64,000 nucleotides of DNA from contig NZ_CANLZU010000002.1 of the NCBI RefSeq assembly GCF_947495715.1, positions 1 to 64,000 of the forward strand. The letters run 5' to 3'. This document shows, one piece after another, positions 5,598-23,835 of the stretch. How positions within the stretch are numbered: position 1 is the first letter of the stretch; the number at the start of each line of letters is the position of its first letter. The position numbers were made by a program, and so were the translations under genes. This DNA comes from an uncultured Oceanisphaera sp. (lineage in GTDB: Bacteria; Pseudomonadota; Gammaproteobacteria; Enterobacterales; Aeromonadaceae). Below the pieces are notes generated by a model. It was not told the DNA's origin. It did no database searches and was given only the letters and a program-made list of their open reading frames with translations.

Positions 5598-6473
5598 ATG
5601 AAGCGCATACTGTTGTTTATTGCCACCAACCTGGCCGTGGTGCTGGTGCTGGGGGTGGTGCTGAACATCGTCTTTTCAATGCTGGGAATCGATCGCAGCA
5701 GCGTCGGTGGCCTGCTGGTGTTCTGTGCCGTGTTCGGTTTTGGCGGTTCGACCATCTCGCTGCTTATCTCCAAATGGATGGCCAAGCGCGCCTACAGCGT
5801 GCAGGTGATTGAGCAGCCCCGCAACGAAATGGAGCACTGGCTGATGACCACGGTCACCCGTCAGGCCCAACAGGCCGGCATCGGCATGCCGGAAGTGGGC
5901 GTGTATGACTCGCCGGACATGAACGCCTTTGCCACCGGCCCCAGCCGTAACAACGCCCTGGTGGCGGTGAGCACCGGCCTTATGTACAGCATGAGCCGGG
6001 ACGAAGCCGAAGCGGTGCTGGCCCACGAAGTCAGCCACGTAGCCAACGGCGACATGGTGACCCTGACCCTGATCCAGGGCGTGGTGAACACCTTCGTTAT
6101 GTTTTTCGCCCGTATCGTGGCCAACATCATCAGCGGCTTCTTCAGCAACAACGAAGAGGAAGAAGGCGGCGGCATGGGTGGTCTGGCCTATTTTGCCATC
6201 GTCATGGTGCTGGAGCTGGTGTTCGGCATTCTGGCCTCCATCATCGTCATGTGGTTCAGCCGTCAGCGTGAATACCGCGCCGACGAAGGCGGTGCCCGCC
6301 TGGCCGGCAAAGAGAAGATGATCGGCGCCCTGGAGCGTCTGCGTCACGGCCCGGAAGTGGAGCTGGAAGGATCGCTCGCCGCCTTTGGCATCAACGGCAA
6401 GCGCCACAGCGAGCTGTTCATGAGCCACCCGCCGCTGGAAAAACGTATTCAGGCCCTGCGCGAACAACGTTAA
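5598..6473 (+). CDS. htpX: Membrane zinc metalloprotease HtpX
   Basis: HtpX is an inner-membrane M48 protease that degrades misfolded membrane proteins together with FtsH. The 291-residue product has two N-terminal membrane segments (about residues 5-25 and 33-55), the catalytic zinc motif HEVSH near residue 143, two further hydrophobic segments (about 155-180 and 195-220), and the third zinc ligand region [19 protein letters not shown] precedes the ATG. It has its own promoter region after bioD and a strong terminator after it, so it is probably monocistronic. Confidence 0.96.
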
Positions 6474-6507
6474 CCAATTGCAATAACCCTGTAGTTTGGT
6501 CTCTTTT

Positions 6508-6533
6508 AACCCCGGCTTGCCGGGGTTTTTTTA
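6508..6533 (+). terminator. Rho-independent terminator after htpX
   Basis: AACCCCGG and CCGGGGTT pair around CTTG, followed directly by a run of T residues, about 35 bp after the htpX stop. Confidence 0.9.
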
Positions 6534-6636
6534 TTGCTGATTGTGAGGGGGGAAGTCAGCGGTACCGAGCATGCCGGTTTATCTCGATAAGCAACAGCCT
6601 ATAAATGATGTGGATTATGAAGCTGGTTTGCCTTTA

Positions 6637-6765
6637 TCGTCACCCTCGCGAACGCGGGGGTCCAGTGCCTTTGCAGACGACCAGCAGTCTGACGGTTCTG
6701 CACCACAGGTTCCGGATTCCCGACAGAGCCATACCGGTCAGGCCGCATTATACCAATCGGATTAA
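6637..6765 (+). repeat. MITE-like dispersed repeat (CTCGCGAA-CGCGGGGGTCCA type), copy 1
   Basis: CGTCACCCTCGCGAACGCGG followed by GGTCCAGTG, TTTGCAG, TCTG and CCGGATTCCCG matches, in order, the reverse complement of 38210-38310. Both lie between genes. The short reading frames here (6571-6790) are not supported as genes. The element is non-autonomous and I see no transposase; a MITE-like origin is inferred from two matching copies only. Confidence 0.5.
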
Positions 6766-6783
6766 TCATATGCTCAGGCCGTC

Positions 6784-6840
6784 ATCCTGACGAAAGTCAG
6801 GATCTCTCTGCAGACAGATGCCGTGCTTAAAACACGGCAT
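6784..6840 (+). other. Two adjacent hairpins upstream of the WYL regulator
   Basis: ATCCTGAC and GTCAGGAT (6784-6803) enclose a GAAA loop. ATGCCGTG and CACGGCAT (6818-6840) enclose a 7-nt loop. They fill the gap between htpX and the CRISPR-linked regulator. Neither is followed by a T run, so they are not ordinary terminators. The rest of 6840-6991 is AT-rich leader with no gene that I can support. Confidence 0.5.
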
Positions 6841-6991
6841 TGTTATCAGAAATTGATCACATCTTTAGTGAGATTGGTATTACTTAAGAACTTGCAAATG
6901 GCGAAGCGGTTTTTTCATTTTCAACGTTTGATCCTTGTTATTTTCATGCCAAGCGCCTTTAATGGCTTAAAACAAAACAAGCACGGACAGC

Positions 6992-7828
6992 ATGATAAAA
7001 ACCGAACTCCATCGCCGTTTCTGGCTGATAGAGCTGGTTGGCTATTGGGAAGGGCGGCTGACCAGCAATCATTTACGGCATTTTTTTGGTTTGAGCCGGC
7101 AACAGGCCAGCAAAGACATCAACCAATATTTGCAGCAACACCCCGGCAATCTGGAGTACTGCGGCTCTGCCAAGGGCTATTTGCCGACCCCATCTTTCTT
7201 GCCAGCATGTATTTCCGGTGACGTAGCCGAATATCTCAACTGGATGACAGGGCAGAGCGCCCATTCCATGCCCACCGCGTCCGGCTGCCGGCTGGAACAC
7301 ACTATTTTGTTGCCACCGGCCAGAAATGTAACCTCCAAGGTCATTCGCCCCCTGGTACAGGCGTTACGTAAAGGTGAACGGCTGGAAGTAGATTACGGCG
7401 CGGTCAGCAATGCCAACCAGGATGGCCGCATCATAGTTCCCGTGCGTTTTGTAAACACCGGCAGTCGCTGGCACCTGCGTGCCTGGTGTGAAAAAGCGAA
7501 CGGCTACCGTGACTTTGTGCTCAGCCGCTTTCACGGCACGCCGATGCCGGAAGGCAAGCCCTTGGCACCGCTGCCGCCCGACACTCACTGGAATACCCAA
7601 ATTACCCTGGTGCTCACACCCGATCCTCGCCTCAACCCGGAGCAACAGCATGCCCTGATACGGGACTACGCCATGAATAACGGCGAACTGAATCTTGAAA
7701 CCCGCGCCGCCCTGGCCGGTTATTTACTGCGCGAAATGCAGATAAACACCAAGATGCTCGACGGCAATCCCGCCGCCCAGCAATTGATACTGGCCAACCA
7801 CGACGAAGTGAAGGAGTGGTTGTTTTGA
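6992..7828 (+). CDS. WYL-domain transcriptional regulator next to the CRISPR-Cas locus
   Basis: The 278-residue protein has an N-terminal winged-helix-like part (about residues 1-70, with HHFGLSRQQASKDINQYLQ-like features near residue 27-45) and a WYL domain (about 120-190). The latter includes LEVDYGAVSN, RIIVPVRFVNT, WHLRAWCEK and GYRDFVLSRFHG, which match the ligand-binding fold. WYL regulators sense ligands such as nucleic acid and often control CRISPR or other defence genes. It lies just upstream of cas3 in the same direction, so it probably regulates this system; its target site is not visible. A cas-like name is not warranted. Confidence 0.85.
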   Translation: MIKTELHRRFWLIELVGYWEGRLTSNHLRHFFGLSRQQASKDINQYLQQHPGNLEYCGSAKGYLPTPSFLPACISGDVAEYLNWMTGQSAHSMPTASGCRLEHTILLPPARNVTSKVIRPLVQALRKGERLEVDYGAVSNANQDGRIIVPVRFVNTGSRWHLRAWCEKANGYRDFVLSRFHGTPMPEGKPLAPLPPDTHWNTQITLVLTPDPRLNPEQQHALIRDYAMNNGELNLETRAALAGYLLREMQINTKMLDGNPAAQQLILANHDEVKEWLF

Positions 7829-7925
7829 CCGGATCTGTAAAGTGACGCGACATGTGTTTTTGCACAGTGTTGGCGGGATGGCCGGAATGCACCACAGTAA
7901 GCGCAGCAAACAAAAGGAACACAGA

Positions 7926-10646
7926 ATGAATGCCAGTTATTTTCTGTATTGGGGCAAGGCGAGTAAGGATGAAAAAGAGTCCGGAGCAGACTATCACTTG
8001 TTACCTTATCACTGCCTCGATGTGGCAGCGGTGGGCTGGTGGCTGCTGGATGAACACGATCCCCTGACCAGAAGTCTGGCTGCATTCCTCAATATTTCTC
8101 CCGCGCAATTGAGGTTGTTGTTTACCTTTTCATTGATGCTGCACGATCTTGGCAAGTTTGCATCGGCATTCCAGAATTTGGCTGACTTCCCAGATTCTCC
8201 GCTGGTTAACTATCAACCAAGGTTTGGCTATGACAGCCGTCAGGCCAGACACGACAGGCTGGGTTATTTTTTCTGGTTACAGGCCAGCCGAGGCAGACAT
8301 TTATCAGGCACCGAGCTTGGACTTAAACAAACCGAACTCACTCAAGCCAGCCCCGCTCTGGACAGTCTGAATGCCATGTTCGATGTGGTGTTTGGCCACC
8401 ATGGCTACCCCATTAACCGGAGCAACCAGCCGAGGGCGATGAAAGACTACTGTCATGAGTCAGATATCAGCGCCGCCTGTGATTTTATTCGCGATTGTGC
8501 AGCGTTGCTGCAAGCTGAGTGGCCGGAGCAGCAAATGGCTGATAAAGAGTGGCTGACGCGCTTTCGGCAGGTGAGCTGGCATTTATCCGGCCTGGCCATT
8601 TTAAGTGACTGGATTGGCTCCGATAGAAACCATTTCGAGTATCAAACCGGTGGTTACACGCTCGATGAGTATTGGTTGCTGGCAAAGGGCAAGGCCCGGC
8701 AGGCACTGGCGGCAACGGAGCTGAACCAGCCTGTGAGTGTACAGCCGTTTATCTCTGTCCAGTCCCATTTTGGCTTTGAACCCACTCCCTTGCAGGCATG
8801 GGCAGAGTCGGTGCCTCTGGCTGCCGGCCCTCAGTTATTCATTCTTGAAGACGTGACGGGCGCCGGTAAAACAGAGGCGGCACTGGCGCTGACCCACCGG
8901 TTGTTGCAGCAAGGTGAAGCCGATGGTTTTTATTTTGGCTTGCCTACCATGGCGACCTCCAATGCCATGTTCTCCCGCGTGGCCGATCACTATCTGCAAA
9001 TGTTATCGGTGCAAGGCAGCCGCCCCAGCATAGTGCTGGCCCATGGTGCCAGAGAAATGAACGAGCGATTTCAGGAAGCCTTGCTCCCTGCAGATAAAGC
9101 CGAAATTTCTTATGCACAAGGCGATGAGACCGCCAGTCTGTATTGCAATCAGTGGCTGGCAGACTCCCGCAAGAAAGCGCTGCTGGCAGCGGTGGGAGTA
9201 GGCACCATAGATCAGGCATTAATGGCAGTACTGCCACGCAAGCATCAGCCGCTACGGCTGATTGGCCTGCACCGGAAAGTGCTGATTTTTGATGAGGTGC
9301 ATGCGGCCGACACCTTCATGTTTGAATTACTGGATGACTTGTTACAGGTTCACCTGCGCCAGGGTGGCAGCGTTATTTTGCTGACGGCGACGTTGGCACA
9401 GCAACAACGGGAACGATTGTGCCGGATCTGGCAACAAGCTGGAGGTATTACTCCTTTGCAGTTACTGGAAAAAGATGATTTTCCCCTGGCCACACATATC
9501 AGCTGTGAGCAAGGCCTGAAAGAAACACCGGTTGCCAGCAGGAAGTCGGTCAGCCGGGATCTGAACGTTGCGTTTGTGCATAGTGAACAGGCTTGTGTCG
9601 AAAAAATTCTGAGCGCTCAAAGAAAAGGCCAGTGTGTGGTGTGGATCCGCAACTCGGTGGACGATGCCATTCGTGCCTATCAAATGCTCGCTGGGCAACT
9701 TGGATCTGATGAAGCACTGACGCTGTTTCACAGCCGATTTACCTTGAAAGATCGCAAGACGATAGAAAACAGGGTGCTGTCTATCTTCGGTAAACAGGGC
9801 GGTCAGGATGATCGGCAGGGGAAAATCCTGATCGCCACCCAGGTTTTCCAGGAAAGTCTCGATGCAGATACCGACCTGATGATCTCCGATCTCTGCCCTA
9901 TTGACGATCTTATTCAGCGAGCCGGCCGGCTTCATCGACACATTCGGGATAAAGGGGGGAACCGCACAGATAAAACGCAGGATGAGCGTTCGTCTCCTCT
10001 TTTGCTGGTTCATGCTCCCGAGTGGCAGGAGCAACCGAATGCTGACTGGCTGCTCAATCATTTGCCTAATACCGAACATGTTTATCGCTCTCCCGGCAGG
10101 CTCTGGTTGGGCATGCAGATATTGCGCAAACAGGGGGCGATCCGCATGCCGGGTGAGGCAAGGAAATTGATAGAAGCGGTTTATGACAAAACGGCATTTG
10201 AGCGTATGCCACCGGCGCTGCAGAAAAAGGAAGATCAATATTTTGGTGAAATGCGCGGCCAGGCAGCCCGGGCCAAGAGTCAGTTAATTGAGTGGAGCAA
10301 AGGTTACAACCAGAGCAGTGCCAAGGCCTGGCACGACGACAACATTGAGATCAGTACACGTTTTTCGGACAGAGAAACCGTTCAGGTACTGGTATTCAGA
10401 CTCGACTCTCAGGGCCGCCTCCAGTTATGGGCAGAAGGCGAGTCTTATGCCTTGCAGAACAGTGTGGTGAAGCTTGCCAAGCATCGCTTCGCCGACAAGC
10501 TGGCGGCCTTGCCCGGAAAGTTTGCCGCAGACTTTGAAAAGCTGACACAGCGCTATCCGCAGGCAAAATTTCTGCAGCCCTGGTTGCCTGATAGCGATCA
10601 GGGTTTTGGATACTGCGCTCAGCTGGGAGTGGTGGTGAAAGAGTAA
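7926..10646 (+). CDS. cas3: CRISPR-associated helicase/nuclease Cas3, type I-E
   Basis: Cas3 is recruited by target-bound Cascade and unwinds and degrades DNA. The 906-residue product begins MNASYFLYWGKAS, as in E. coli Cas3. An HD nuclease domain comes first (YHCLDVAAVG near residue 28, MLHDLGKFASAF near 71, FGHHGYP), then an SF2 helicase with Walker A TGAGKTEA, DEVHAAD and LLTATL, and motif VI DLIQRAGRLHRH. The frame opens 28 codons earlier, but the ATG at 7926 is preceded by AAAGGAAC and fits family length. Its stop codon lies inside a degenerate CRISPR repeat on the other strand (10641-10669). A gap of about 300 bp then separates it from the Cascade genes. Confidence 0.97.
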   Translation: MNASYFLYWGKASKDEKESGADYHLLPYHCLDVAAVGWWLLDEHDPLTRSLAAFLNISPAQLRLLFTFSLMLHDLGKFASAFQNLADFPDSPLVNYQPRFGYDSRQARHDRLGYFFWLQASRGRHLSGTELGLKQTELTQASPALDSLNAMFDVVFGHHGYPINRSNQPRAMKDYCHESDISAACDFIRDCAALLQAEWPEQQMADKEWLTRFRQVSWHLSGLAILSDWIGSDRNHFEYQTGGYTLDEYWLLAKGKARQALAATELNQPVSVQPFISVQSHFGFEPTPLQAWAESVPLAAGPQLFILEDVTGAGKTEAALALTHRLLQQGEADGFYFGLPTMATSNAMFSRVADHYLQMLSVQGSRPSIVLAHGAREMNERFQEALLPADKAEISYAQGDETASLYCNQWLADSRKKALLAAVGVGTIDQALMAVLPRKHQPLRLIGLHRKVLIFDEVHAADTFMFELLDDLLQVHLRQGGSVILLTATLAQQQRERLCRIWQQAGGITPLQLLEKDDFPLATHISCEQGLKETPVASRKSVSRDLNVAFVHSEQACVEKILSAQRKGQCVVWIRNSVDDAIRAYQMLAGQLGSDEALTLFHSRFTLKDRKTIENRVLSIFGKQGGQDDRQGKILIATQVFQESLDADTDLMISDLCPIDDLIQRAGRLHRHIRDKGGNRTDKTQDERSSPLLLVHAPEWQEQPNADWLLNHLPNTEHVYRSPGRLWLGMQILRKQGAIRMPGEARKLIEAVYDKTAFERMPPALQKKEDQYFGEMRGQAARAKSQLIEWSKGYNQSSAKAWHDDNIEISTRFSDRETVQVLVFRLDSQGRLQLWAEGESYALQNSVVKLAKHRFADKLAALPGKFAADFEKLTQRYPQAKFLQPWLPDSDQGFGYCAQLGVVVKE

Positions 10647-10730
10647 ATCCCCGCCGAAGCGGGGAACAGGATAGAACCGAGAGAACAGTCTCTCTCTAGA
10701 GGGGTTCATCTCCGGGTATCGGAGAAACAG
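10641..10730 (-). ncRNA. Candidate crRNA-like regulatory RNA: degenerate repeat, 32-nt pseudo-spacer, degenerate repeat
   Basis: Read on the minus strand, 10730-10702 matches the array repeat at 18 of 29 positions and 10669-10641 at 20 of 29, with no gaps. The interval between them (10701-10670) is exactly 32 nt, so the unit has the 61-nt period of the real array. The downstream pseudo-repeat keeps the CCCCGC/GCGGGG stem with a TTCG loop and the flanking GTT and GGGGAT. The upstream one keeps a hairpin (TCTCCG/CGGAGA) and an 8-nt handle ATGAACCC, against ATAAACCG in the array. Processing by Cas6e would give a crRNA-like guide. The pseudo-spacer matches the cse1 promoter. Known relatives in concept are the CreR/CreA guides of type I-B systems. 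Expression is inferred; I did not identify a convincing promoter, though TATAGT (minus strand, near 10790) could serve as a -10. Confidence 0.7.
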
Positions 10731-10783
10731 CGTGGAGAGTACGTGAGTTTGAGGAGCATCGCCAGATCTGAAAGAAAACTCCC

Positions 10784-10824
10784 AATAACTATAAAATTAC
10801 AGTTTCACTGTAGAGCTTTATAAT
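10784..10824 (+). promoter_or_regulatory. Promoter of the cse1-cas2 operon overlapping a predicted Cascade binding site
   Basis: A consensus -10 TATAAT lies at 10819-10824, with a weak -35 (TTACAG, 10797-10802) 16 bp upstream, pointing to a start near 10831 and a leader of about 113 nt before cse1. Directly upstream of the -10, CTT at 10816-10818 is the target-strand form of the AAG PAM. The minus-strand sequence from 10815 down to 10784 matches the pseudo-spacer at 19 of 32 positions, including 14 of the first 17. Cascade bound here would cover the -35 and the spacer region and so block transcription. Confidence 0.7.
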
Positions 10825-10943
10825 TTTGATCTTGGTGTTCAAGTGTGGTTTACTTGAGTCCAGTATCGAATCCATCAGATAGAGGTGGGCGTAATTGAGG
10901 CAGCGAGCTACTTCATATTTTACGACATTAAGGAGCAATATTA

Positions 10944-12536
10944 ATGAATCTGATAACCGCTCCCTGGCTGAGCTACCGGCTCAGGGATGGCAGCGAGCAG
11001 CAGTTGCCGCTGACTGCCATTGCCAACCCGAATGTAGTGGATTTTGCATCGTCAAGGGCCGACTTCCATGGTGCCGCTTACCAGTTTGCCATTGGCCTGT
11101 TACAGACAGCTCTGGCCCCGCAGGATAAAGATGACTGGCATGAGCAGTATCTGACGCCGCCCGATGAGGCCGAGCTGGCCGCCGCGTTCACCAAGGTGGA
11201 GCATGCCTTTGAGCTGGACGGAGACGGACCGCGCTTTATGCAGGATCTGGATTCGCTGGATGCCGCCAGTCCTGTTCCGGTTTCCGGCCTCTTGATAGAA
11301 GCACCGGGCGGCAACACCCTTAAGCTGAATACCGATCATTTCATTAAACGTGGCATTGCGGAAACGCTGTCACCAGAGATGGCGGCGCTGGCGCTGTTTA
11401 CCCTGCAAATCAATGCGCCATCGGGTGGCCAGGGTCACAGAACCGGCCTGCGAGGAGGTGGCCCGCTGACCACCCTGGTGCTGCCCCATGAAGACGATGC
11501 CAGCCTGTGGCAAAAATTGTGGCTGAACGTACAGAGCCGGGAATCCTGGACGTATAAAGACCCCGATTATCACAGTGCAGAGCTGTTCCCCTGGCTGGGA
11601 GAAACCCGCATCAGCAAGACCAAGGGCAGTGATATCTACGAGCACGATGTACATCCGCTTGCCATGTTCTGGGCCATGCCGCGACGAGTCCGATTGCTGT
11701 TTGAACAACAGGAAGGCACTTGCCAGTTAAGCCTTAAAGCGTGTACCACTGTTTGCCGGCAATATCGCACCAGCAATTACGGCAATAACTATGTGGGTAC
11801 CTGGCAGCATCCGCTGACCCATTACCGCTCTAACCCCAAAAAGCCGGATGAGGATTACTTATCCACCAAAGGGCAGCCCGGCGGAATTCAGTATAAGCAA
11901 TGGCACAGCCTCAGCTTTGTGGATACGGCGGAAGGCAGTCATCCAGCCCAGGTGGTACAGGACTTTCTTCTGCACAAGTCTGAGTATTTCGATGTTGACT
12001 GGGGAGAAGCCCCCAGATTGTGGGCCTTTGGATTCGATATGGACAATATGAAGGCCAGAGGCTGGTACAACAGCGAATTTCCGCTGATCCGGCTGGATCC
12101 CGAACTCAGAGATGAGTTGCTTCATGAAATCAAGGCCATGCAACGCCTGGCGCAAGAGGTGCTGTGGCACTGCCGGACCCAGATAAAGGCAGCCTGGTTT
12201 GATAAACCGGCCGATGCCAAAGGCGATACCAGCCACATCGACTTACAGTTCTGGCAGCGAACACAGCATGACTTTTTTCAGATGGTGGCAGCGCTGCTGA
12301 ATGCACCGGATGGCCGGTTAACACCGGAAGCCGCCGGCCGCTGGTTGTGGGCATTGTCCCGTCATGCCAAAACACTGTTTGACGATCTGGCACTGTCCAA
12401 TCTGTATCCCGACCGGGAAATGTATAAAAAAATCCGCGCTCGCCGTCAGCTCAGTGGCTGGCTGGCAGGCAGCAAACGTATCCGGCAATTCAGTCAGGAT
12501 TACCGACTCGACACCTTAACCAGGGAGCTGGCGTGA
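10944..12536 (+). CDS. casA: Cascade large subunit Cse1 (CasA, Cas8e)
   Basis: Cse1 recognises the PAM and recruits Cas3 in the type I-E Cascade complex. The 530-residue product begins MNLITAPWLSYRLRDG, a typical Cse1 N-terminus, and contains FHGAAYQFAIGLLQTALAP and INAPSGGQGHRTGLRGGGP (the loop region near residue 150-170), then a helical C-terminal bundle. AAGGAG at 10930-10935 sets the start. It is the first gene of the Cascade operon, after a long leader with its own promoter. Its TGA overlaps the start of cse2. Confidence 0.95.
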   Translation: MNLITAPWLSYRLRDGSEQQLPLTAIANPNVVDFASSRADFHGAAYQFAIGLLQTALAPQDKDDWHEQYLTPPDEAELAAAFTKVEHAFELDGDGPRFMQDLDSLDAASPVPVSGLLIEAPGGNTLKLNTDHFIKRGIAETLSPEMAALALFTLQINAPSGGQGHRTGLRGGGPLTTLVLPHEDDASLWQKLWLNVQSRESWTYKDPDYHSAELFPWLGETRISKTKGSDIYEHDVHPLAMFWAMPRRVRLLFEQQEGTCQLSLKACTTVCRQYRTSNYGNNYVGTWQHPLTHYRSNPKKPDEDYLSTKGQPGGIQYKQWHSLSFVDTAEGSHPAQVVQDFLLHKSEYFDVDWGEAPRLWAFGFDMDNMKARGWYNSEFPLIRLDPELRDELLHEIKAMQRLAQEVLWHCRTQIKAAWFDKPADAKGDTSHIDLQFWQRTQHDFFQMVAALLNAPDGRLTPEAAGRWLWALSRHAKTLFDDLALSNLYPDREMYKKIRARRQLSGWLAGSKRIRQFSQDYRLDTLTRELA

Positions 12537-13147
12537 TGACAGACACAGAGCAAGCCGTAACACCCAAAGCACTCTTTGCCGGCGAGGGCGCATTAATGCG
12601 CTGGTGGCAAGCCATGATGTTGACCGAGCAGGAGCTCAAAACATTGGATATTCGGCCCGCGCCCACCGTGTATCGTGCCGAGCTGAGACGGGCCGGCACA
12701 CCGGAAGCGGCCTTGATGACCCAGGGGTTCAGAGCCTTGTGGCTGGCGTTGCCGGCTTCGGCCCGGGAGCGAAAGCCCTGGAGCATGCTGGCATGGGCAG
12801 CCCTGGCGGGCGTGCTGAGTCATGTAAAGCAGCAGGATGGCAGCAAAAGCTTTGCGGCGTCACTGGGCAAAATTAACCCCGATATCGACAAACCCAACGT
12901 CAGTGAATTGCGCTTTCAGCAACTGCAGGGAGCGAGAACGCCGGAGGACTTTTACCGTCGTCTGCACCGGTTGATAAAGCAGGTAAACGGTAAAACCCAT
13001 GTGGCTTCTCTGGCCAGAGGCATACTCGACTGGTTTGATGAACATCACGGCCGGCAGGCACTGCGGCCCGATAAAAAAATCGCCGTACGCTGGGCAATGG
13101 ATTACTACCAGGCCGCCGAATCGGCGCTGGCAAAAAACAAGGATTAA
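12536..13147 (+). CDS. casB: Cascade small subunit Cse2 (CasB, Cas11)
   Basis: Cse2 forms the dimer along the Cascade belly that stabilises the R-loop. From ATG 12536 the protein has 203 residues, mostly helical, with the Cse2-type segment LRFQQLQGARTPEDFYRRL near residue 122. A GTG at 12533 would add one residue. The ATG shares a base with the cse1 TGA, so translation is coupled. Small subunits diverge strongly; the identity rests on both the motif and the invariant position between cse1 and cas7. Confidence 0.92.
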   Translation: MTDTEQAVTPKALFAGEGALMRWWQAMMLTEQELKTLDIRPAPTVYRAELRRAGTPEAALMTQGFRALWLALPASARERKPWSMLAWAALAGVLSHVKQQDGSKSFAASLGKINPDIDKPNVSELRFQQLQGARTPEDFYRRLHRLIKQVNGKTHVASLARGILDWFDEHHGRQALRPDKKIAVRWAMDYYQAAESALAKNKD

Positions 13148-13161
13148 ACAAGGAGATTATG

Positions 13162-14196
13162 ATGAGCAAATTTATTCAACTGCACCTGCTGACCTCTTAT
13201 GCCCCTTCCAACCTGAACCGCGATGATCTGGGCCGTCCTAAAACCGCCCGCATGGGCGGAACGGAGCGTTTAAGAGTCAGCTCACAGAGCCTGAAGCGTC
13301 ATTGGCGTACTTCCGATGTGTTTGAGCAAACCCTGGGTCAGCACATTGGCACCCGTACCAAACGACTGGGCGTGGAAGTATTTAATCAGCTGTGTGAGCT
13401 GGGCGTGTCTGAGAAGCAGGCCAAAACCTGGGCGATAGCCATTGCCGGTGTGTTTGGAAAAGGTAAAAAGGACAGCCTGGAAATTGAACAGCTTGCTCAT
13501 ATCAGCCCGGAAGAGCTGGCAGCCGTAGACGCCTTGGTGAAGACCCTGGCCGCAGAAAATCGCGTACCGGAAAAAGAAGATCTTGCCTTGTTGCGCAAAA
13601 ATGCCGCTGCAGCAGACATTGCCATGTTCGGCCGCATGCTGGCATCTTCCCCTGAGTTTAACTGTGAAGCAGCCTGCCAGGTTGCCCATGCCATCAGTGT
13701 GCATGGCGTTGCGGTAGAAGAAGATTATTTTACCGCCGTGGATGATCTGAACCGGGGCGATTCGGATCTTGGTGCGGCGCATATTGGTGAAGCGGCCTTT
13801 TCTGCTGCCTTGTTTTACAGCTATATCTGCATCGACAAAGAGCTGCTTGTCAGCAACCTGGGCGGGGATATCGAGCTCGCCAACAAGGCCATTACCGCAT
13901 TGGTAGAAGCCGCGGTGAAAGTGTCTCCGAAAGGCAAGCAGAACAGCTTTGCCTCCCGTGCTTATGCCTCTTATGTGCTGGCCGAAAAAGGCGCTCAGCA
14001 GCCACGGTCTTTGTCGGTCGCCTTTCTGAAGCCCATTATCGGTGAAAACCAGGCCGAAGACGCGGTTCAGGCACTGCAGCGCCAGGCTGAAAATTTTGAC
14101 AAGGTGTATGGAGCCTGTGCCGATGACCGCTACTCCGTCAATGCCCTGGAAGGTGAGGGCAGTTTTGAGCAGCTAAAAGCATTTGCCGCAGATTAA
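13162..14196 (+). CDS. casC: Cascade backbone subunit Cas7e (CasC, Cse4)
   Basis: Cas7e forms the six-subunit filament that holds the crRNA spacer. The protein begins MSKFIQLHLLTSYAPSNLNR, with DLGRPKTARMGGTERLRVSS and QSLKRHWRTS just after, the family signature. C-terminal PKGKQNSFASRAYASYVLAE is also characteristic. Two tandem ATGs exist (13159 and 13162); AGGAG at 13151-13155 favours the second, giving 344 residues. It lies 14 bp after cse2. Confidence 0.95.
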   Translation: MSKFIQLHLLTSYAPSNLNRDDLGRPKTARMGGTERLRVSSQSLKRHWRTSDVFEQTLGQHIGTRTKRLGVEVFNQLCELGVSEKQAKTWAIAIAGVFGKGKKDSLEIEQLAHISPEELAAVDALVKTLAAENRVPEKEDLALLRKNAAAADIAMFGRMLASSPEFNCEAACQVAHAISVHGVAVEEDYFTAVDDLNRGDSDLGAAHIGEAAFSAALFYSYICIDKELLVSNLGGDIELANKAITALVEAAVKVSPKGKQNSFASRAYASYVLAEKGAQQPRSLSVAFLKPIIGENQAEDAVQALQRQAENFDKVYGACADDRYSVNALEGEGSFEQLKAFAAD

Positions 14197-14205
14197 GGAG
14201 GCATT

Positions 14206-14940
14206 ATGCAATATCTGGTTTTTCGGCTTTATGGTCCCATGGCCAGCTGGGGTGAAGCCGCCGTGGGCGGAGACAGGCCTTCGGGCCTGACTCCCGGTCG
14301 CTCTGCGGTACTGGGGCTGCTTGGTGCCGCGCTGGGTATTAAACGGGACGAGGTGAGCCGGCTTGACGCGCTGCGGGCTGCGGTGGGGGTTGCCGTTAAG
14401 GCTTATTCCTGCGGCAGCTTGATGCGGGACTATCATACCGCTCAGGTACCTTCACAGGACAAGAAGCGCACATTTTACAGCCGGAAAGATGAGCTGAGTA
14501 TTGACAAAGAGAAGCTGAATACGGTGTTGTCCAGCCGTGATTATCGCAGTGATGGCTATTGGGTGGTGGCAGTGTGGTTATGGCAGCAAAGCGAATTTAC
14601 GCTTGAAAAGCTTGAGGCTGCATTAAAACAACCGGTATTCACGCCGTATCTTGGGCGCAAGGCCTGCCCGCTGGCCGTTCCGGTAACGCCTCAATTGGTG
14701 GAAGCAGGGTTAAAAGAAACGCTCGATACATCATTCCCGCCGATTTTATTCAGCCATGAGCAGGATCGGCGCTGGCTTGGTCTGGGTAATACCGTCACTT
14801 ATCTGTGGCAGGGAGCAGCCGATGACTTGGGCGAATATGAAGGTATGCAGAGCAGCCAAGTATGGGATGAGCCGATAAGTCGGGAACCCTGGCAGTTTTC
14901 GGCACGGCAGGTGCATCAGCTGACTCTGGTGGAGGAATAA
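14206..14940 (+). CDS. casD: Cascade subunit Cas5e (CasD)
   Basis: Cas5e caps the 5' handle of the crRNA. The 244-residue protein opens with LVFRLYGPMASWGEAAVGGD, where the Cas5 pattern of a beta strand followed by GPxxSWG is plain, followed by RPSGLTPGRSAVLGLLGAALG and then a tail with YHTAQVPS. AAGGAGG precedes the ATG. It is 9 bp after cas7 and 1 bp before cas6e. Confidence 0.95.
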   Translation: MQYLVFRLYGPMASWGEAAVGGDRPSGLTPGRSAVLGLLGAALGIKRDEVSRLDALRAAVGVAVKAYSCGSLMRDYHTAQVPSQDKKRTFYSRKDELSIDKEKLNTVLSSRDYRSDGYWVVAVWLWQQSEFTLEKLEAALKQPVFTPYLGRKACPLAVPVTPQLVEAGLKETLDTSFPPILFSHEQDRRWLGLGNTVTYLWQGAADDLGEYEGMQSSQVWDEPISREPWQFSARQVHQLTLVEE

Positions 14941-14941
14941 C

Positions 14942-15763
14942 ATGTATCTATCCCGTGTAACCCTGGCTGATGCACCATCGGCCAGAGATGAATTGATTAA
15001 GTCCATGCACAAAGGAGTGTATGGCTATCACCAGTTGCTGTGGCGTCTTTTCACTCAGCAAAGTGAGCGCAGCTTTTTATTTCGTCACGAGCAGAGTGAT
15101 GGTCGCCTGGTACCTCAGGGAGAGCCTGTTTTTTATGTGCTTTCCCGCGAGCAGCCTGATAATGCCGAGCAGCTGTTTCAGGTGGAAAGCCGGCCATTTT
15201 TACCCCAGCTCACGTCAGGAGATCAACTCGGCTTTCAGATCAGGGTAAACCCGACGGTGTGCCGTAACGGAAAACGGCATGATGTCTTGATGGATGCTCA
15301 GCAGAAATGGCTGTATCAAGAAGCACAGTTGCTGGCGTTGCCCACTGAGGGCACCAAAAAAAACCTGACGCACCGGTTGCTGGATATGGCAACAGATGAA
15401 GATATTCGGCGCTGGAATACAGTGATTGAAAGCGGTCGCTATTGCGACGAGCTGGAAGCAAGATTAGGCAGAAGCTCAGCACTCGAACTGGCGTTAAAAA
15501 CCATTTCCGGGCAGGCGTTATTGGCCTGGTGGCAGCAGCGTAGCCAACAAATCGGTATTCAGTGCTCGGATGATGCCGTGCAGGCCGATGGGTATTTGCA
15601 GCACCATATCAAAGGGAAGGGGGTCGGTGCCATGTTCAGCTCGATTAACCTCAGCGGCACTCTTACCGTAGATAACCCGGATGTCTTTGTGGAAGGCCTT
15701 GCCCAAGGTATTGGTCGTTCCAAAGCTTTCGGCTGCGGGCTCATGTTAATCCGAAGGATTTGA
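14942..15763 (+). CDS. casE: CRISPR RNA endonuclease Cas6e (CasE, Cse3)
   Basis: Cas6e cuts pre-crRNA at the base of each repeat hairpin and stays bound to the 3' stem. The 273-residue protein begins MYLSRVTL and contains KGVYGYHQLLWRLF, whose histidine (about residue 29) corresponds to the catalytic one of E. coli CasE. It ends with the glycine-rich RNA-binding loop GIGRSKAFGCGLMLIR. It follows cas5 by 1 bp. The same enzyme would be expected to process the crRNA-like RNA at 10641-10730. Confidence 0.95.
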   Translation: MYLSRVTLADAPSARDELIKSMHKGVYGYHQLLWRLFTQQSERSFLFRHEQSDGRLVPQGEPVFYVLSREQPDNAEQLFQVESRPFLPQLTSGDQLGFQIRVNPTVCRNGKRHDVLMDAQQKWLYQEAQLLALPTEGTKKNLTHRLLDMATDEDIRRWNTVIESGRYCDELEARLGRSSALELALKTISGQALLAWWQQRSQQIGIQCSDDAVQADGYLQHHIKGKGVGAMFSSINLSGTLTVDNPDVFVEGLAQGIGRSKAFGCGLMLIRRI

Positions 15764-15790
15764 TTCGCGGCACTTTCAGGGAGCTGATGC

Positions 15791-17004
<1,214 letters not shown>

Positions 17005-17088
17005 GTTATGGATCTTTAACAACCCGGAATAGTTGGTGACTTTTTCTTGTCTGGAAAAAGCCATCTAAATCAGTAATATACGTTTAGA
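17005..17088 (+). promoter_or_regulatory. CRISPR leader
   Basis: This AT-rich stretch of 84 bp lies between the cas2 stop and repeat 1. It is the leader side because the degenerate repeat is at the opposite end and because the repeat strand matches E. coli orientation. CTTTTTC and GGAAAAAG (17038-17067 region) can pair. I could not identify a convincing IHF site or promoter by eye. Confidence 0.75.
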
Positions 17089-20000
17089 CCGTTCCCCGCA
17101 GGCGCGGGGATAAACCGCGTTTTTTGAAGATGAGCCGGTAAAGACCGGCCCGTTCCCCGCAGGCGCGGGGATAAACCGCGGACGAAGTGACCAAAGCCAA
17201 TATCAAGGGCCCGTTCCCCGCAGGCGCGGGGATAAACCGTTTTCAATGGTGATCACATCCGGCAAACGTATCCGTTCCCCGCAGGCGCGGGGATAAACCG
17301 TAGCCTGTGCGTTCCCTCAGCGACTCTGAAGGCCGTTCCCCGCAGGCGCGGGGATAAACCGTTGGGGTTATCACGTTTGATATTTTATATCTACCGTTCC
17401 CCGCAGGCGCGGGGATAAACCGGATATGCCTTTGGCAAAAACGCCGCCCTTAAGCCGTTCCCCGCAGGCGCGGGGATAAACCGCCGGTAACGCTGGCGTC
17501 TGGCATCAGAAGCCGCCGTTCCCCGCAGGCGCGGGGATAAACCGAATCATTATAAAAACGATAATAAGCAACAGAACCGTTCCCCGCAGGCGCGGGGATA
17601 AACCGTGATCAGCGATGACTATGATTCCGGGATCTACCCGTTCCCCGCAGGCGCGGGGATAAACCGATTTTTCATATTATCTTGATAATGAAGAGCGTCC
17701 GTTCCCCGCAGGCGCGGGGATAAACCGCCTGACCAGGCTCTACCGTACACCACCACTGGCCGTTCCCCGCAGGCGCGGGGATAAACCGCGCGATCTGGAT
17801 ATCGGCCTGGGTGATGTGGGCCGTTCCCCGCAGGCGCGGGGATAAACCGGCATTTGCAGCTAACATCTGGGCACGAGCAACCCGTTCCCCGCAGGCGCGG
17901 GGATAAACCCCACCGATGCCAACAAGCTGATCAGCGCCCGGCCCGTTCCCCGCAGGCGCGGGGATAAACCGCCGGCAGGCGGCAAAGGCGGCCGGTCGGG
18001 AGCCCGTTCCCCGCAGGCGCGGGGATAAACCGGGCAAGGTGTTCACCGCGAGCGTGGAGGACGGCCGTTCCCCGCAGGCGCGGGGATAAACCGTTTTCAT
18101 CGCCCTCTATGCTGACGCAGTTGATCCGTTCCCCGCAGGCGCGGGGATAAACCGGGTACTTGGCTTTCCCACCAGCCGCGCGTCGCCCGTTCCCCGCAGG
18201 CGCGGGGATAAACCGCTGTCCCCCGTTGCCCAGGCGCGGGAGATAGGCCGTTCCCCGCAGGCGCGGGGATAAACCGTGTATCTAAAACCGCATTGGTTGA
18301 ATTCAAATCCGTTCCCCGCAGGCGCGGGGATAAACCGTAAGATCAATTGCTTCCATGTGTAAATCTCCGCCGTTCCCCGCAGGCGCGGGGATAAACCGGG
18401 TTATATTCCAGCGGTTCCCATTCAATATCACCGTTCCCCGCAGGCGCGGGGATAAACCGAAACTTGAAACCGCTCAAACAGAGAATGATGGCCGTTCCCC
18501 GCAGGCGCGGGGATAAACCGCGGCTGTAAAATTGCTGTCGTGATGTAGTGAACCGTTCCCCGCAGGCGCGGGGATAAACCGTGTGGCAGCTGGACGTTAT
18601 GCTGCCCGCCGGTCCGTTCCCCGCAGGCGCGGGGATAAACCGACGGCTACACCATGCCGGTGGTCTGCTACTACCCGTTCCCCGCAGGCGCGGGGATAAA
18701 CCGTACGCCACCTCCTACCTGGGTGCCATTGCCCACCGTTCCCCGCAGGCGCGGGGATAAACCGTTAGACAATGGCGAAGCCATGCCAAACCGGTGCCGT
18801 TCCCCGCAGGCGCGGGGATAAACCGGTTGAGTCAGGCGAGTGTATTGATTATGAGTGCCGTTCCCCGCAGGCGCGGGGATAAACCGGCACCCACGGCGAA
18901 CACGCCCGACAGGGCCGCCCGTTCCCCGCAGGCGCGGGGATAAACCGCATTTTCCCAACGATCGCCACATTCGAAGTAAACCGTTCCCCGCAGGCGCGGG
19001 GATAAACCGGCAGTGACCCGGCCGAGTGATTCACGTCACGACCGTTCCCCGCAGGCGCGGGGATAAACCGACATAAACGAGATCATCAATAGTCATGCTA
19101 ACCCGTTCCCCGCAGGCGCGGGGATAAACCGGTGGGCAACAGCGGAGAAATGCCCCATTTGTGCCGTTCCCCGCAGGCGCGGGGATAAACCGGTGCCACT
19201 CATTTCGGCAATCCACCTGGCCGCCCGTTCCCCGCAGGCGCGGGGATAAACCGGAACCGGAGTAGTCGATTTGCAGGGGGATCGACCGTTCCCCGCAGGC
19301 GCGGGGATAAACCGCCCGGTATTCGGTGGGATTTGTTGGCGGGGCCCCGTTCCCCGCAGGCGCGGGGATAAACCGGGCGGTATCGCCTCGATGGTGCTTG
19401 AGGCCAACCGTTCCCCGCAGGCGCGGGGATAAACCGATGGTGTTACATGCTCAGTAGGTTCGATACCTCCGTTCCCCGCAGGCGCGGGGATAAACCGCGA
19501 GTCGATCCCCGCCTTGGCCTGCTCCAAAGCCGTTCCCCGCAGGCGCGGGGATAAACCGGATCCACGCAAGAAGGCAGGCAATCACATGTGCCGTTCCCCG
19601 CAGGCGCGGGGATAAACCGGATGCGGCGGCGACCGTGACAAGGGCAAGCGACCGTTCCCCGCAGGCGCGGGGATAAACCGTCTACCGTGACTGCCCTCAG
19701 TGCAACAAAAGCCCGTTCTCCGCAGGCGCGGGGATAAACCGGATCAGCTACACGCTGGTGAGCGGCTGTATTACCGTTCCCCGCAGGCGCGGGGATAAAC
19801 CGCGGAACTCCATTTCTTTACCGACTAGATGACACCGTTCCCCGCAGGCGCGGGGATAAACCGTCTGAATGTCTGGACTTGCCCGAGAAAACCCTTCCGT
19901 TCCCCGCAGGCGCGGGGATAAACCGCATGGGCTTACCACCCGGCTGTCCGCACTCATCCGTTCCCCGCAGGCGCGGGGATAAACCGCTGATTCTTGAAGC

Positions 20001-23000
20001 TGATGCCGAAAATCCGAGCCGTTCCCCGCAGGCGCGGGGATAAACCGCAGCTCACAGGGAGCGTCACCGCACACCGTGAACCGTTCCCCGCAGGCGCGGG
20101 GATAAACCGCGGTCGAGGTATGCAAACGAGCGATCGAAGGACCGTTCCCCGCAGGCGCGGGGATAAACCGCCGGTGATCATGGACGGTTTTGGTGGCCTG
20201 TGCCGTTCCCCGCAGGCGCGGGGATAAACCGCCCTTGCGGTCCTGATTCTGGGCCGCGCTGCGCCGTTCCCCGCAGGCGCGGGGATAAACCGCTCGACCA
20301 GGGTGCCCTCTACCGGGTACTGGACCGTTCCCCGCAGGCGCGGGGATAAACCGCGTTCTTTTCTCGCGTGTTCCGCTGGGCATACCCGTTCCCCGCAGGC
20401 GCGGGGATAAACCGCATGGTTTAAATGATTCACAAAAACAACAACGCCGTTCCCCGCAGGCGCGGGGATAAACCGTGTGGAAGATGAAAAACGAGTCCGG
20501 CGAAGAACCGTTCCCCGCAGGCGCGGGGATAAACCGAGCGGTTGATTAACCTGATGTTGCAGGCTGGGCCGTTCCCCGCAGGCGCGGGGATAAACCGCGC
20601 TTGTGAGTGCGTTTAGGCGGCTCTGATACCCGTTCCCCGCAGGCGCGGGGATAAACCGGTAACGTCATGAATAATAATCAAAAATCCAAACCGTTCCCCG
20701 CAGGCGCGGGGATAAACCGTGGGCGCGGTATGCCTGGGTAGGCCCCATACTCCGTTCCCCGCAGGCGCGGGGATAAACCGCATACCCCTCTAGCTTTAGA
20801 GTTGCCTCCTCACCGTTCCCCGCAGGCGCGGGGATAAACCGCCGCTAGTGGAAAACGAGCCGGTGGCCGGGGTCCGTTCCCCGCAGGCGCGGGGATAAAC
20901 CGACGGTTTAGCAGGGCGAGGGGGGATCAGAGCCCCGTTCCCCGCAGGCGCGGGGATAAACCGCTTCGCGCTTCATTGCTCCATGATATTGATGACCCGT
21001 TCCCCGCAGGCGCGGGGATAAACCGGCTGGCAAAAGCAAGGCGCAAGCGGCGTTCGACCGTTCCCCGCAGGCGCGGGGATAAACCGCCTTTTTTTATGCC
21101 TGACAACAGGGTGCCACACCGTTCCCCGCAGGCGCGGGGATAAACCGCACGTGGTCAAGCTTCGAACAAGCGGTGAAGGCCGTTCCCCGCAGGCGCGGGG
21201 ATAAACCGATATGTATTCGAATTAAAATCATCATACCAATCCGTTCCCCGCAGGCGCGGGGATAAACCGTAGAATCTGGCGAGTGGATTGACTACGAGTG
21301 ACCGTTCCCCGCAGGCGCGGGGATAAACCGCCCCTTGCCCTGACCGGTGCGCCCAGTGACTGCCGTTCCCCGCAGGCGCGGGGATAAACCGGTGGGGTTG
21401 GGGCTGGATCAGGTGCGCAACGTCCGTTCCCCGCAGGCGCGGGGATAAACCGGGTAGTAGCGGGATCTTCGGCAGCAATCGTACCCGTTCCCCGCAGGCG
21501 CGGGGATAAACCGGGGGCAGCATGGCCTGGAATCAGCTGGTCGGCCCCGTTCCCCGCAGGCGCGGGGATAAACCGCATCATCATGCTCATCCCAAAAATC
21601 AGAAGCACCGTTCCCCGCAGGCGCGGGGATAAACCGGGGGCTAGGGTGTGCAGGTGATTTGACGTTATCCCGTTCCCCGCAGGCGCGGGGATAAACCGTC
21701 TGGATGTTGATCGCAACTTTCCAGATATAACCGTTCCCCGCAGGCGCGGGGATAAACCGCATTACCACCGCCCGATATACCCTTATCCCGACCGTTCCCC
21801 GCAGGCGCGGGGATAAACCGACGATTCCAGCATGTTATACATGCCGACCGGCCCGTTCCCCGCAGGCGCGGGGATAAACCGACAGATAATCATGGATGCA
21901 ATTAGACATTGAACCGTTCCCCGCAGGCGCGGGGATAAACCGTGATTCAGATACCTCCATTTATAAATATAAAACCGTTCCCCGCAGGCGCGGGGATAAA
22001 CCGTAACATTGCGGTTTGGGGAAGCAGTAGCAAAGACCGTTCCCCGCAGGCGCGGGGATAAACCGGCAATTCGGCAACAGTAGCATTTGTATGGTCGCCG
22101 TTCCCCGCAGGCGCGGGGATAAACCGACACCATTCGTAAATACAAAAAAGGCCTGCGCCCGTTCCCCGCAGGCGCGGGGATAAACCGCTCTATTTGACCA
22201 GTGCGTCTAATCCTACTAACCGTTCCCCGCAGGCGCGGGGATAAACCGCAAGAGGTCGCCGCCAGTGACAGAACAAGCGGCCGTTCCCCGCAGGCGCGGG
22301 GATAAACCGCCCCGGCCCACCAAGGGCGGCACTGCTACGCCCCGTTCCCCGCAGGCGCGGGGATAAACCGCAGGGTTTCGACTACACCGCGATCGGTAAT
22401 ACCCGTTCCCCGCAGGCGCGGGGATAAACCGAGCACGCCAACGCCTTTACCGTGGCCAAAATGCCGTTCCCCGCAGGCGCGGGGATAAACCGGGCCGAAT
22501 CATTACCTGGTTAAACAGCCTGGACCGTTCCCCGCAGGCGCGGGGATAAACCGCTTACCTGAGCGGTCGCGAGCCATGGCGTCGACCGTTCCCCGCAGGC
22601 GCGGGGATAAACCGTTTTAAGCGGCTTTACCGTCGAGCGGGAAAGCCCGTTCCCCGCAGGCGCGGGGATAAACCGGCAACAATTACGGCATTGTTATTGT
22701 TGTACATCCGTTCCCCGCAGGCGCGGGGATAAACCGCCCGGCCCTCGTGCGTTGTGCGATAGGTACGACCGTTCCCCGCAGGCGCGGGGATAAACCGTCA
22801 GCGGCGAAATTGCCGAGTGCTTTGAATGTCCGTTCCCCGCAGGCGCGGGGATAAACCTGAGCAAGAGCAAGCAGCAACTGGAATCCCAGCCCGTTCCCCG
22901 CAGGCGCGGGGATAAACCGGGCCGGGCCGGTATGTCGCCCCACAGGTGCGGCCGTTCCCCGCAGGCGCGGGGATAAACCGCCTCTCACCACATTCACGAG

Positions 23001-23835
23001 AGAGTTTATCGCCCGTTCCCCGCAGGCGCGGGGATAAACCGGCAATTCGTAATACCCTTGCCGATGCCGTGGCCCGTTCCCCGCAGGCGCGGGGATAAAC
23101 CGCGTCCCTGAAAACTGGTCAGGCCCTTGCCGCCCCGTTCCCCGCAGGCGCGGGGATAAACCGTGGCTGTTTGACGGCTGCACGGTAGAGCCCCGCCGTT
23201 CCCCGCAGGCGCGGGGATAAACCGCCTGCAGCGTTGCGGTGGCCGCCGCCGCCAAACCGTTCCCCGCAGGCGCGGGGATAAACCGGTCGCAGAGGCCACT
23301 GATACACTGACGGAAAGCCGTTCCCCGCAGGCGCGGGGATAAACCGCTGCTGCGGGCCATTGGTGAGCACCGGGTTTTCCGTTCCCCGCAGGCGCGGGGA
23401 TAAACCGCCAAGCACGAATCACGCAAGCTGCAACCCTGGCCCGTTCCCCGCAGGCGCGGGGATAAACCGCAGGTGGCGCTCTTCATCGGCGTGGCGAATG
23501 GCCGTTCCCCGCAGGCGCGGGGATAAACCGCTCATCACCGATATCGACGACACCGGATTTACCCGTTCCCCGCAGGCGCGGGGATAAACCGGTCTCTACC
23601 TGCTTGCTACTGGATCGGGACTGCCGTTCCCCGCAGGCGCGGGGATAAACCGTCATCGGTTTCTTTCGGGCCGGCCGAACGAGGCCGTTCCCCGCAGGCG
23701 CGGGGATAAACCGCCATCAATGCGGCGGTTGCGGGCAATGCGGCCCCGTTCCCTGCAGGCGCGGGGATAAACCGGTGTGGCACAGGAAGCCTACTTGATG
23801 GGAATACCGTTCCCCGTACGCACGGGGATTAATTA
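17089..23835 (+). CRISPR. Type I-E CRISPR array, 111 repeats of 29 bp and 110 spacers
   Basis: The repeat has a CCCCGC/GCGGGG stem around AGGC, an upstream CCGTT and a downstream ATAAACCG handle. First repeat starts at 17089 and last at 23807. The distance equals 110 periods of 61 plus 8 bases, so most spacers are 32 nt and about eight are 33 nt. Repeats are nearly identical, with single-base variants at 17882 (last base C), 19713 (C to T in the stem), 22830 (last base T) and 23746 (C to T in the stem). The terminal repeat at 23807 is degenerate after CCGTTCCCCG, marking the trailer. Transcription runs left to right from the leader. The length and uniformity suggest an active system. Confidence 0.99.

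What the first reader, a model, noticed from the sequence alone, without database searches (positions are those of the whole stretch)
10641..10730. Hidden minus-strand mini-CRISPR between cas3 and cse1 with exact 61-nt geometry
Two degenerate copies of the array repeat lie in inverse orientation at 10702-10730 (18 of 29 identical) and 10641-10669 (20 of 29), without gaps, and are separated by exactly 32 nt. The nearer-to-cas3 copy keeps the perfect CCCCGC/GCGGGG stem with a TTCG loop and overlaps the cas3 stop codon. This has the form of a crRNA-like guide (repeat handle, 32-nt guide, repeat hairpin) hidden inside the cas operon. Similar guides (CreR/CreA) are known from type I-B and a few other systems. 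A type I-E example with this design and tetraloop would be new to me.
Basis: partly seen in the sequence, partly recalled or inferred. Interest (0 to 1): 0.95.

Follow-up and report, generated by a model that had tools for sequence, protein, structure and literature searches.

The report
CRISPR guide that silences its own operon
Between two CRISPR genes of a marine bacterium lies a small, worn-down CRISPR unit whose guide RNA is predicted to steer the defence complex to the switch of its own genes and turn them down; such self-regulating guides are already known, and this is a clear new example.

Summary
Two minus-strand repeat relics (10702-10730, 18/29; 10641-10669, 20/29) flank a 32-nt spacer and form the best 61-nt repeat pair in the window outside the array. 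It is the best PAM-plus-seed site in the 3.6-Mb genome. The six genus members with a cas3-cse1 gap all keep the arrangement, with three unrelated guides, each matching its own promoter. In a survey, 29 of 45 loci with a gap of at least 60 nt carry it, with near-chance matching at the flipped-out positions 6 and 12. Most likely it is a CreR: Cascade represses its own operon, pairing too short for cleavage. It is not new in kind: a review credits CreRs to type I-E, and a type I-E guide-plus-toxin module in the same gap is published. Added here: the carriers, guide-promoter co-turnover, two guide-length classes, and a small ORF present in O. baumannii but missing in the window. RNA, processing and repression are untested.

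The parts
10702..10730 (-). Degenerate repeat 1 (psi-R1), hairpin plus 5' handle AUGAACCC
   Evidence: 18/29 to the array repeat; stem-loop in the fold; perfect stems of 5-6 bp in the six genus carriers
10670..10701 (-). 32-nt guide CTCTAGAGAGAGACTGTTCTCTCGGTTCTATC
   Evidence: Exact 32-nt spacing; matches the cse1 promoter region
10641..10669 (-). Degenerate repeat 2 (psi-R2), 7-pair hairpin with TTCG loop and T-rich tail; overlaps the cas3 stop codon; candidate terminator
   Evidence: 20/29; the only terminator-like site found in 10600-10960, mean 0.2 in shuffles
10649..10709 (-). Predicted mature 61-nt crRNA-like RNA if cut like a type I-E crRNA (8-nt handle, 32-nt guide, 21-nt 3' hairpin)
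   Evidence: Inference from known type I-E Cas6e processing; not tested
10784..10815 (-). Predicted protospacer; 14 of the first 17 positions match, mismatches at 6, 9 and 12
   Evidence: the only site at 1 mismatch in the genome for the PAM-plus-seed pattern
10816..10818 (-). PAM 5'-AAG-3' (CTT on the + strand)
   Evidence: the PAM was not part of the score
10796..10824 (+). Predicted promoter of the cse1 (Cascade) operon, ATTACA-17-TATAAT; -35 and spacer covered by the protospacer, PAM abuts the -10
   Evidence: 10 of 12 consensus matches, best of 3 promoter-like sites in 10600-10960; a consensus match only
10944..12536 (+). cse1/casA (large Cascade subunit), first gene downstream of the target
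   Evidence: TIGR02547, 379.6 bits
7842..10646 (+). cas3
   Evidence: TIGR01587 and TIGR01596
12533..16708 (+). cse2, cas7e, cas5e, cas6e and cas1e genes, including the presumed processing enzyme Cas6e
   Evidence: NCBIfam matches
17089..23774 (+). CRISPR array, 110 repeats, start-to-start 61-62 nt

Best explanation
A CreR-type autoregulatory guide. A minus-strand transcript from the cas3-cse1 gap is cut by Cas6e at two degenerate repeats, giving a 61-nt crRNA-like RNA. Loaded into Cascade, it finds AAG plus a seed match in the cse1 promoter, just upstream of the -10 box. It pairs for about 17 nt, with bases 6 and 12 flipped out, and blocks RNA polymerase. Pairing past position 17 is near background, so Cas3 should not cut the chromosome. 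The result is negative feedback: free Cascade represses its own operon, and abundant crRNAs or anti-CRISPRs that occupy Cascade would relieve it. Shown from sequence: repeats, geometry, target, PAM, overlap with a predicted promoter, conservation and co-turnover. Inferred: transcription, processing, loading, repression and the feedback role. Repeat 2 probably also ends the transcript (inferred from its hairpin and T-rich tail).
For: The geometry is exact. The best guide-target match in the gap has AAG although the PAM was not scored, and 0 of 2000 shuffled guides did as well. In the own genome the pattern's other sites have 3 mismatches, against 1 for this site. In the genus there are three guide families (CTCTA, GTTTG, CTATG), and each matches its own, different promoter. 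Before any PAM filter, 32 of 45 distinct gap loci had a best site with p at most 0.02, and its PAM was AAG in 27, AAA in 2, other in 3, against 1.8% AAG among all sites of the carriers' regions. Among the 29 carriers, matches per position are 29 at each of 1-5 (required by the filter), 29/27/25/28/29 at 7-11, 4 at 6 and 6 at 12, and fall after 17; positions 6, 12, 18 and 24 were not scored. Of 324 coding control segments 6 scored at least 9.5, none with AAG or AAA. Of 812 guide-against-other-locus pairs 21 reached 9.5, 16 of them between homologous guides or targets, 5 not, against 28 of 29 for guides on their own loci. E. coli Cascade binds with AAG plus as few as 5 bp but needs more than 18 bp for interference (PMC5904413 passages). 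In a type I-B CreA, changes at 6 and 12 are tolerated and changes at the other ten of the first 12 positions are not (PMC8501985 passages).
Against: There is no RNA or expression evidence. No minus-strand promoter was found next to repeat 1 by the consensus scan. Position 9 is mismatched in the window, whereas O. baumannii pairs there; in the type I-B test a change at any of the ten paired seed bases cost about 10^4-fold in transformation, read there as loss of toxin repression. Repeat 1 has a 5-nt loop and may be a poor Cas6e substrate. In the survey the protospacer overlaps my best predicted promoter in only 14 of 29 carriers, so promoter calls are rough. 16 of 45 gap loci did not pass as carriers, among them five Halomonas or Vreelandella loci with gaps near 525 nt (one of the 16, L051, is a carrier by hand). 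Four of ten genus members with a Cse1 have no gap and no element there.
Confidence: 0.85

Rival explanations
1. A CreTA-type addiction module: the same guide represses a toxin (small RNA or very short ORF) made from the promoter at 10796-10824, and cas repression is secondary.
For: Citrobacter rodentium has a type I-E CreTA with a translated 96-bp toxin in the same cas3-casA gap, guide on the opposite strand (PMC12055562). O. baumannii has a 43-49 aa ORF downstream of its target. By eye, 17 of 29 surveyed carriers have small ORFs of three recurring kinds there.
Against: The window has no ORF of 25 aa or more in the 126 nt between target and cse1. The O. baumannii ORF is missing from that place and not found elsewhere in the genome. 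cse1 follows directly.
Confidence: 0.1
2. A dead remnant of a former mini-array, kept only by descent.
For: Both repeats are degenerate, and one seed position of the window is mismatched.
Against: Guide and target sequences have been replaced in the genus while the pairing and the AAG PAM stay. Mismatches concentrate at the flipped-out positions 6 and 12. Repeat hairpins stay intact.
Confidence: 0.04
3. The hairpin next to cas3 is only a transcription terminator or mRNA-end structure, and its likeness to a repeat is chance.
For: It is terminator-like on the minus strand.
Against: The scan found no terminator on the + strand, where cas3 ends. A second repeat sits exactly 61 nt away with a crRNA handle, and the 32 nt between match the promoter region.
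Confidence: 0.01

Closest known systems
CreR, cas-regulating RNA (Liu et al. 2023, Cell Host Microbe, pmid 37659410; not held; known here through passages of reviews PMC13131331 and PMC12737573)
   Same: crRNA-like RNA with partial match to a cas promoter, guiding Cas proteins to repress cas genes; reported for types I-B, I-E and V-A; generally not coupled with a toxin gene
   Different: Another host clade. I could not read the original, so I cannot say whether this genus or arrangement is in it
Type I-E CreTA of Citrobacter rodentium (PMC12055562, one section read)
   Same: Same cas3-casA gap, guide on the opposite strand, target with a type I-E PAM beside a promoter
   Different: That locus encodes a translated 96-bp toxin and has an ATG PAM; the window has no ORF of 25 aa or more there and has AAG
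CreA/CreTA of haloarchaea, type I-B (PMC8501985 and PMC9458426, passages)
   Same: Two degenerate repeats around a spacer, the first more diverged; seed pairing at 1-5 and 7-11 with 6 and 12 free
   Different: Type I-B, TTC PAM, RNA toxin
CRISPR-derived regulatory mini-arrays (Shmakov et al. 2023, NAR, PMC10450183; not held; title seen in a reference list; content recalled)
   Same: Recalled as standalone repeats and mini-arrays aimed at cas promoters, mostly in type I
   Different: Not compared member by member

Membership tests
CreR (type I-E) | Spacer flanked by degenerate copies of the cognate repeat, outside the array, in the cas locus | tested here: met
   18/29 and 20/29, 61-nt period
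CreR (type I-E) | Partial complementarity of the guide to a cas promoter, with PAM | tested here: met
   AAG, 14 of first 17 positions, predicted promoter 10796-10824; the promoter itself is a consensus match only
CreR (type I-E) | Maintained guide-target pairing in relatives (my criterion) | tested here: met
   6 of 6 genus members with a gap; 29 of 45 surveyed distinct loci with a gap of at least 60 nt, plus L051 by hand
CreR (type I-E) | Expressed and processed by Cas6 | not testable with these tools
   No RNA data
CreR (type I-E) | Effector-dependent repression of cas expression, relieved by competing crRNA or anti-CRISPR | not testable with these tools
   Needs reporter assays
CreTA (type I-E, Citrobacter kind) | Translated small toxin ORF downstream of the guided promoter | tested here: not met
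   No ORF of 25 aa or more between target and cse1; shorter ORFs were not ruled out
CreTA (RNA toxin kind) | Toxic small RNA from the guided promoter | tested here: inconclusive
   Only 126 nt of sequence; toxicity cannot be judged from it
CrePA | Protein toxin, typically with a KilA-N domain, under CreA control | tested here: not met
   No ORF of 25 aa or more between target and cse1
Ordinary CRISPR array | Near-identical repeats | tested here: not met
   18/29 and 20/29, against 110 copies of at least 24/29 in the array

The most novel reading that the evidence does not exclude
Autoregulatory guides of this kind are what remains when a CRISPR-repressed toxin module loses its toxin. In this one genus the stages can be seen side by side: O. 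baumannii with guide, target and a small coding ORF; L009 with a decayed ORF remnant; the window with the ORF cleanly missing. The guide-promoter pairing survives each loss. More widely, type I-E loci carry a set of unrelated small peptides under the same guided promoter, and guides come in two lengths, 20-22 and 32-33 nt.
Probability: 0.4. Interest if true: 0.7.

Novelty: new member of a known kind. Interest (0 to 1): 0.5.

Why it matters
It gives a natural type I-E self-regulating guide with a defined target in a marine genus, and a set of relatives in which guide and promoter have changed together. That makes two questions testable: how short a pairing Cascade uses to repress without cutting its own chromosome, and whether regulatory guides descend from toxin modules. 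It also shows how a guide hidden as decayed repeats can be recognised: handle and hairpin, then AAG plus seed in the neighbouring promoter.

Tried and rejected
Rfam: no match at gathering scores in 6000-18000. Viral contigs were searched for copies of the guide: none for the CTCTA guide; three hits for the GTTTG guide, two of them the same sequence, had no repeat hairpin in front by eye and look like chance. The O. baumannii small ORF has no plasmid match at E 0.001 and no Pfam or NCBIfam match. An upstream scan of loci that are not carriers gave many low-complexity or palindromic hits; AAG hits were L060 and L077, with good handles, and L075, with a poor one. Upstream of cas3 this scan reached the fuller copies (L013-L015) of three of the four genus members without a gap and gave no AAG hit; the fourth (L010) is too short to reach. 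Cross-locus control: 21 of 812 guide-region pairs reached 9.5; 15 are homologous guides hitting the related mini-array (PAM CC-), one is a related guide on a related target, and five are unrelated, one of these with AAG (L031 guide on the L070 target). The stem rule missed L051 and reported a false site there; by hand it scores 17 with AAG and is counted apart. A covariation count on the six-sequence alignment was not run, because the repeat-1 stem is shifted by one base between members. The carrier filter required positions 1-5 to match, p at most 0.02 and PAM AAG or AAA; three duplicate loci (L012, L018, L036) were dropped before counting. The Zobellella CRISPR paper PMC6742469 was searched for six terms only: no mention of a mini-CRISPR, crRNA or intergenic element.

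Full report
Setting. The window carries a type I-E locus: cas3 (7842-10646), cse1 (10944-12536), cse2, cas7e, cas5e, cas6e and cas1e (cas2 was not tested), and an array of 110 repeats at 17089-23774. The nearest named relatives by Cse1 are Oceanimonas, Zobellella and Oceanisphaera, so the strain belongs to that clade; its own name is not given.

Observation. Between cas3 and cse1 the minus strand holds two repeat relics, 10702-10730 (18/29) and 10641-10669 (20/29), exactly 32 nt apart. Single matches of 18-19/29 occur elsewhere in the window, but the pair at 61-nt spacing is the best outside the array, 38 matches against 32 for the next, and one of the two 32s reuses the second copy. The second relic overlaps the cas3 stop TAA (10644-10646). 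The 90-nt RNA folds well (-35.7 kcal/mol, z -3.54).

Target. The guide read on the minus strand is CTCTAGAGAGAGACTGTTCTCTCGGTTCTATC. A scan of the gap region that did not score the PAM and ignored positions 6, 12, 18 and 24 returned as best site the minus strand of 10784-10815, with AAG in front. Positions 1-5, 7-8, 10-11 and 13-17 match; 6, 9 and 12 do not. None of 2000 shuffled guides did as well. The PAM abuts the -10 box of the best promoter-like site in the region, ATTACA-17-TATAAT at 10796-10824, and the protospacer covers its -35 box. In the own genome (3.65 Mb) the PAM-plus-seed pattern has one site with 1 mismatch, this one, and four with 3, one of which is the guide's own locus; the reversed control pattern gives one.

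Relatives in the genus. 10 of 23 genus genomes have a Cse1 match, the window included. Six have a cas3-cse1 gap of 262-560 nt (window, O. baumannii, O. marisflavi, L004, Z. iuensis, L009) and all six carry the element with a 32-nt guide; in the other four (L005, L007, L008, L010) cas3 and cse1 overlap and there is no room. Guides fall into three unrelated sequences, and each matches its own promoter region with AAG. Repeat 1 keeps a stem of 5-6 unbroken pairs in all six. By identity to a generic repeat it is more worn than repeat 2 in five of the six; in O. marisflavi it is 20 against 19. In Z. iuensis a stem pair has changed on both sides relative to the others, seen by eye.

Wider survey. 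From the 79 loci plus the loci, 82 distinct loci have cas3 upstream of cse1. 45 of them have a gap of at least 60 nt. 32 of these gave a best site with p at most 0.02, with PAM AAG in 27, AAA in 2, ACC in 2 and GTG in 1, against an AAG rate of 1.8% over all sites of the carriers' regions. The 29 with AAG or AAA and a match at positions 1-5 are called carriers. L051, the GTG case, was a miss of my stem rule; by hand it scores 17 with AAG. Matches per position in the 29 are all 29 at 1-5, 4 at position 6, 29/27/25/28/29 at 7-11, 6 at 12, 25/22/20/16/19 at 13-17, and near background after that. The filter itself demanded positions 1-5; positions 6 and 12 were left free and lie near the 25% expected by chance. 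Of 324 coding control segments 6 reached 9.5 and none had AAG or AAA. Of 812 guides set against other loci, 21 reached 9.5, five of them not explained by homology; on their own loci 28 of 29 do. Inferred guide length (distance to the best second-repeat match) is 20-22 nt in 16 carriers and 32-33 nt in 13, with none between. The 16 non-carriers include five Halomonas or Vreelandella loci with gaps near 525 nt. Two loci without a gap (L060, L077) have such a guide with an AAG target upstream of cas3 instead.

Mechanism. E. coli Cascade binds with AAG plus as few as 5 bp, but interference needs more than 18 bp, and every sixth base is flipped out (PMC5904413, passages). In a type I-B CreA, seed bases 1-5 and 7-11 are needed while 6 and 12 are free (PMC8501985, passages). 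The element fits this design: binding without cutting, at the predicted promoter of the operon that makes Cascade. The second repeat is the only terminator-like site found in 10600-10960 and lies on the minus strand; several other carriers have a T-rich tail there (by eye). Inferred and not shown: transcription, Cas6e cutting, loading and repression. A weak point is the mismatch at position 9, absent in O. baumannii. Another is that no minus-strand promoter next to repeat 1 was found.

Toxin question. O. baumannii has a 43-49 aa ORF between target and cse1; ORFs alike by eye lie in L020, L031 and L073. Between L031 and L073 differences by codon position are 3, 3, 15, and against O. baumannii 9, 5, 13 and 9, 6, 19, which suggests coding. 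A second, tryptophan-rich kind in the Halomonas group shows weaker or no third-position excess (6, 5, 6; 3, 3, 7; 3, 6, 9). The window lacks the O. baumannii ORF: its sequence runs on directly where O. baumannii has it, and no copy is found elsewhere in the genome. O. baumannii alone of 23 genus genomes has it intact, which would also fit an insertion; but L009 keeps a stretch that aligns to the ORF's 3' part with a broken frame (local alignment; frame by eye; no significance was computed), which favours loss. By eye, 17 of 29 carriers have small ORFs of three kinds after the target, some hydrophobic. A Citrobacter rodentium module of this design has a translated toxin (PMC12055562, section read). 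So these may be toxin modules, and the window may be one that lost its toxin. None of the peptides searched had a family match at its curated cut-off (10 in Pfam; 5 in NCBIfam).

Known or new. A 2026 review says CreRs mediate autorepression in types I-B, I-E and V-A (PMC13131331, passage). The original paper was not held. Paper searches for CreR, mini-CRISPR, mini-array, CreTA and Oceanimonas or Zobellella CRISPR terms listed nothing that announces this genus's element; beyond listings I saw only the passages and sections named here and term hits in PMC6742469. The finding is therefore a new member of a known kind.

Noticed in passing
L018/L002 (O. baumannii), between guided promoter and cse1: A 43-49 aa ORF (IFRRF..GRLLDARQYG..AWPI) with look-alikes in L020, L031 and L073; no Pfam or NCBIfam match. 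Candidate toxin of a guide-repressed module; missing in the window, remnant in L009.
   Followed up: partly
L024, L032, L033, L035, L038, L042, L045, cas3-cse1 gap: About 32-52 aa tryptophan-rich basic peptides (..EWDWVSI..) downstream of the guide target, grouped by eye, mostly in the Halomonas group; codon signal weak.
   Followed up: partly
L060 and L077, upstream of cas3: Guide with AAG target upstream of cas3, followed by a small hydrophobic ORF ending in basic residues; possible guide-repressed toxin in Desulfuromonadales-related type I-E loci.
   Followed up: partly
29 carrier loci: Guide lengths are bimodal, 20-22 nt (16 loci) or 32-33 nt (13 loci), none between; the difference is about two 6-nt Cas7 steps (recalled).
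   Followed up: no
Carriers such as L025, L065, L087: The PAM (CTT on the + strand) overlaps a TTGACA-like -35 box, so the promoter element itself supplies the PAM.
   Followed up: no
window 10798-10812: The target contains a perfect inverted repeat TACAGT-ttc-ACTGTA, which could also be a protein operator.
   Followed up: no
L031 guide against L070 region: The guide of L031 also scores 10 with AAG on the L070 target, in a different genus; chance or shared descent not examined.
   Followed up: no
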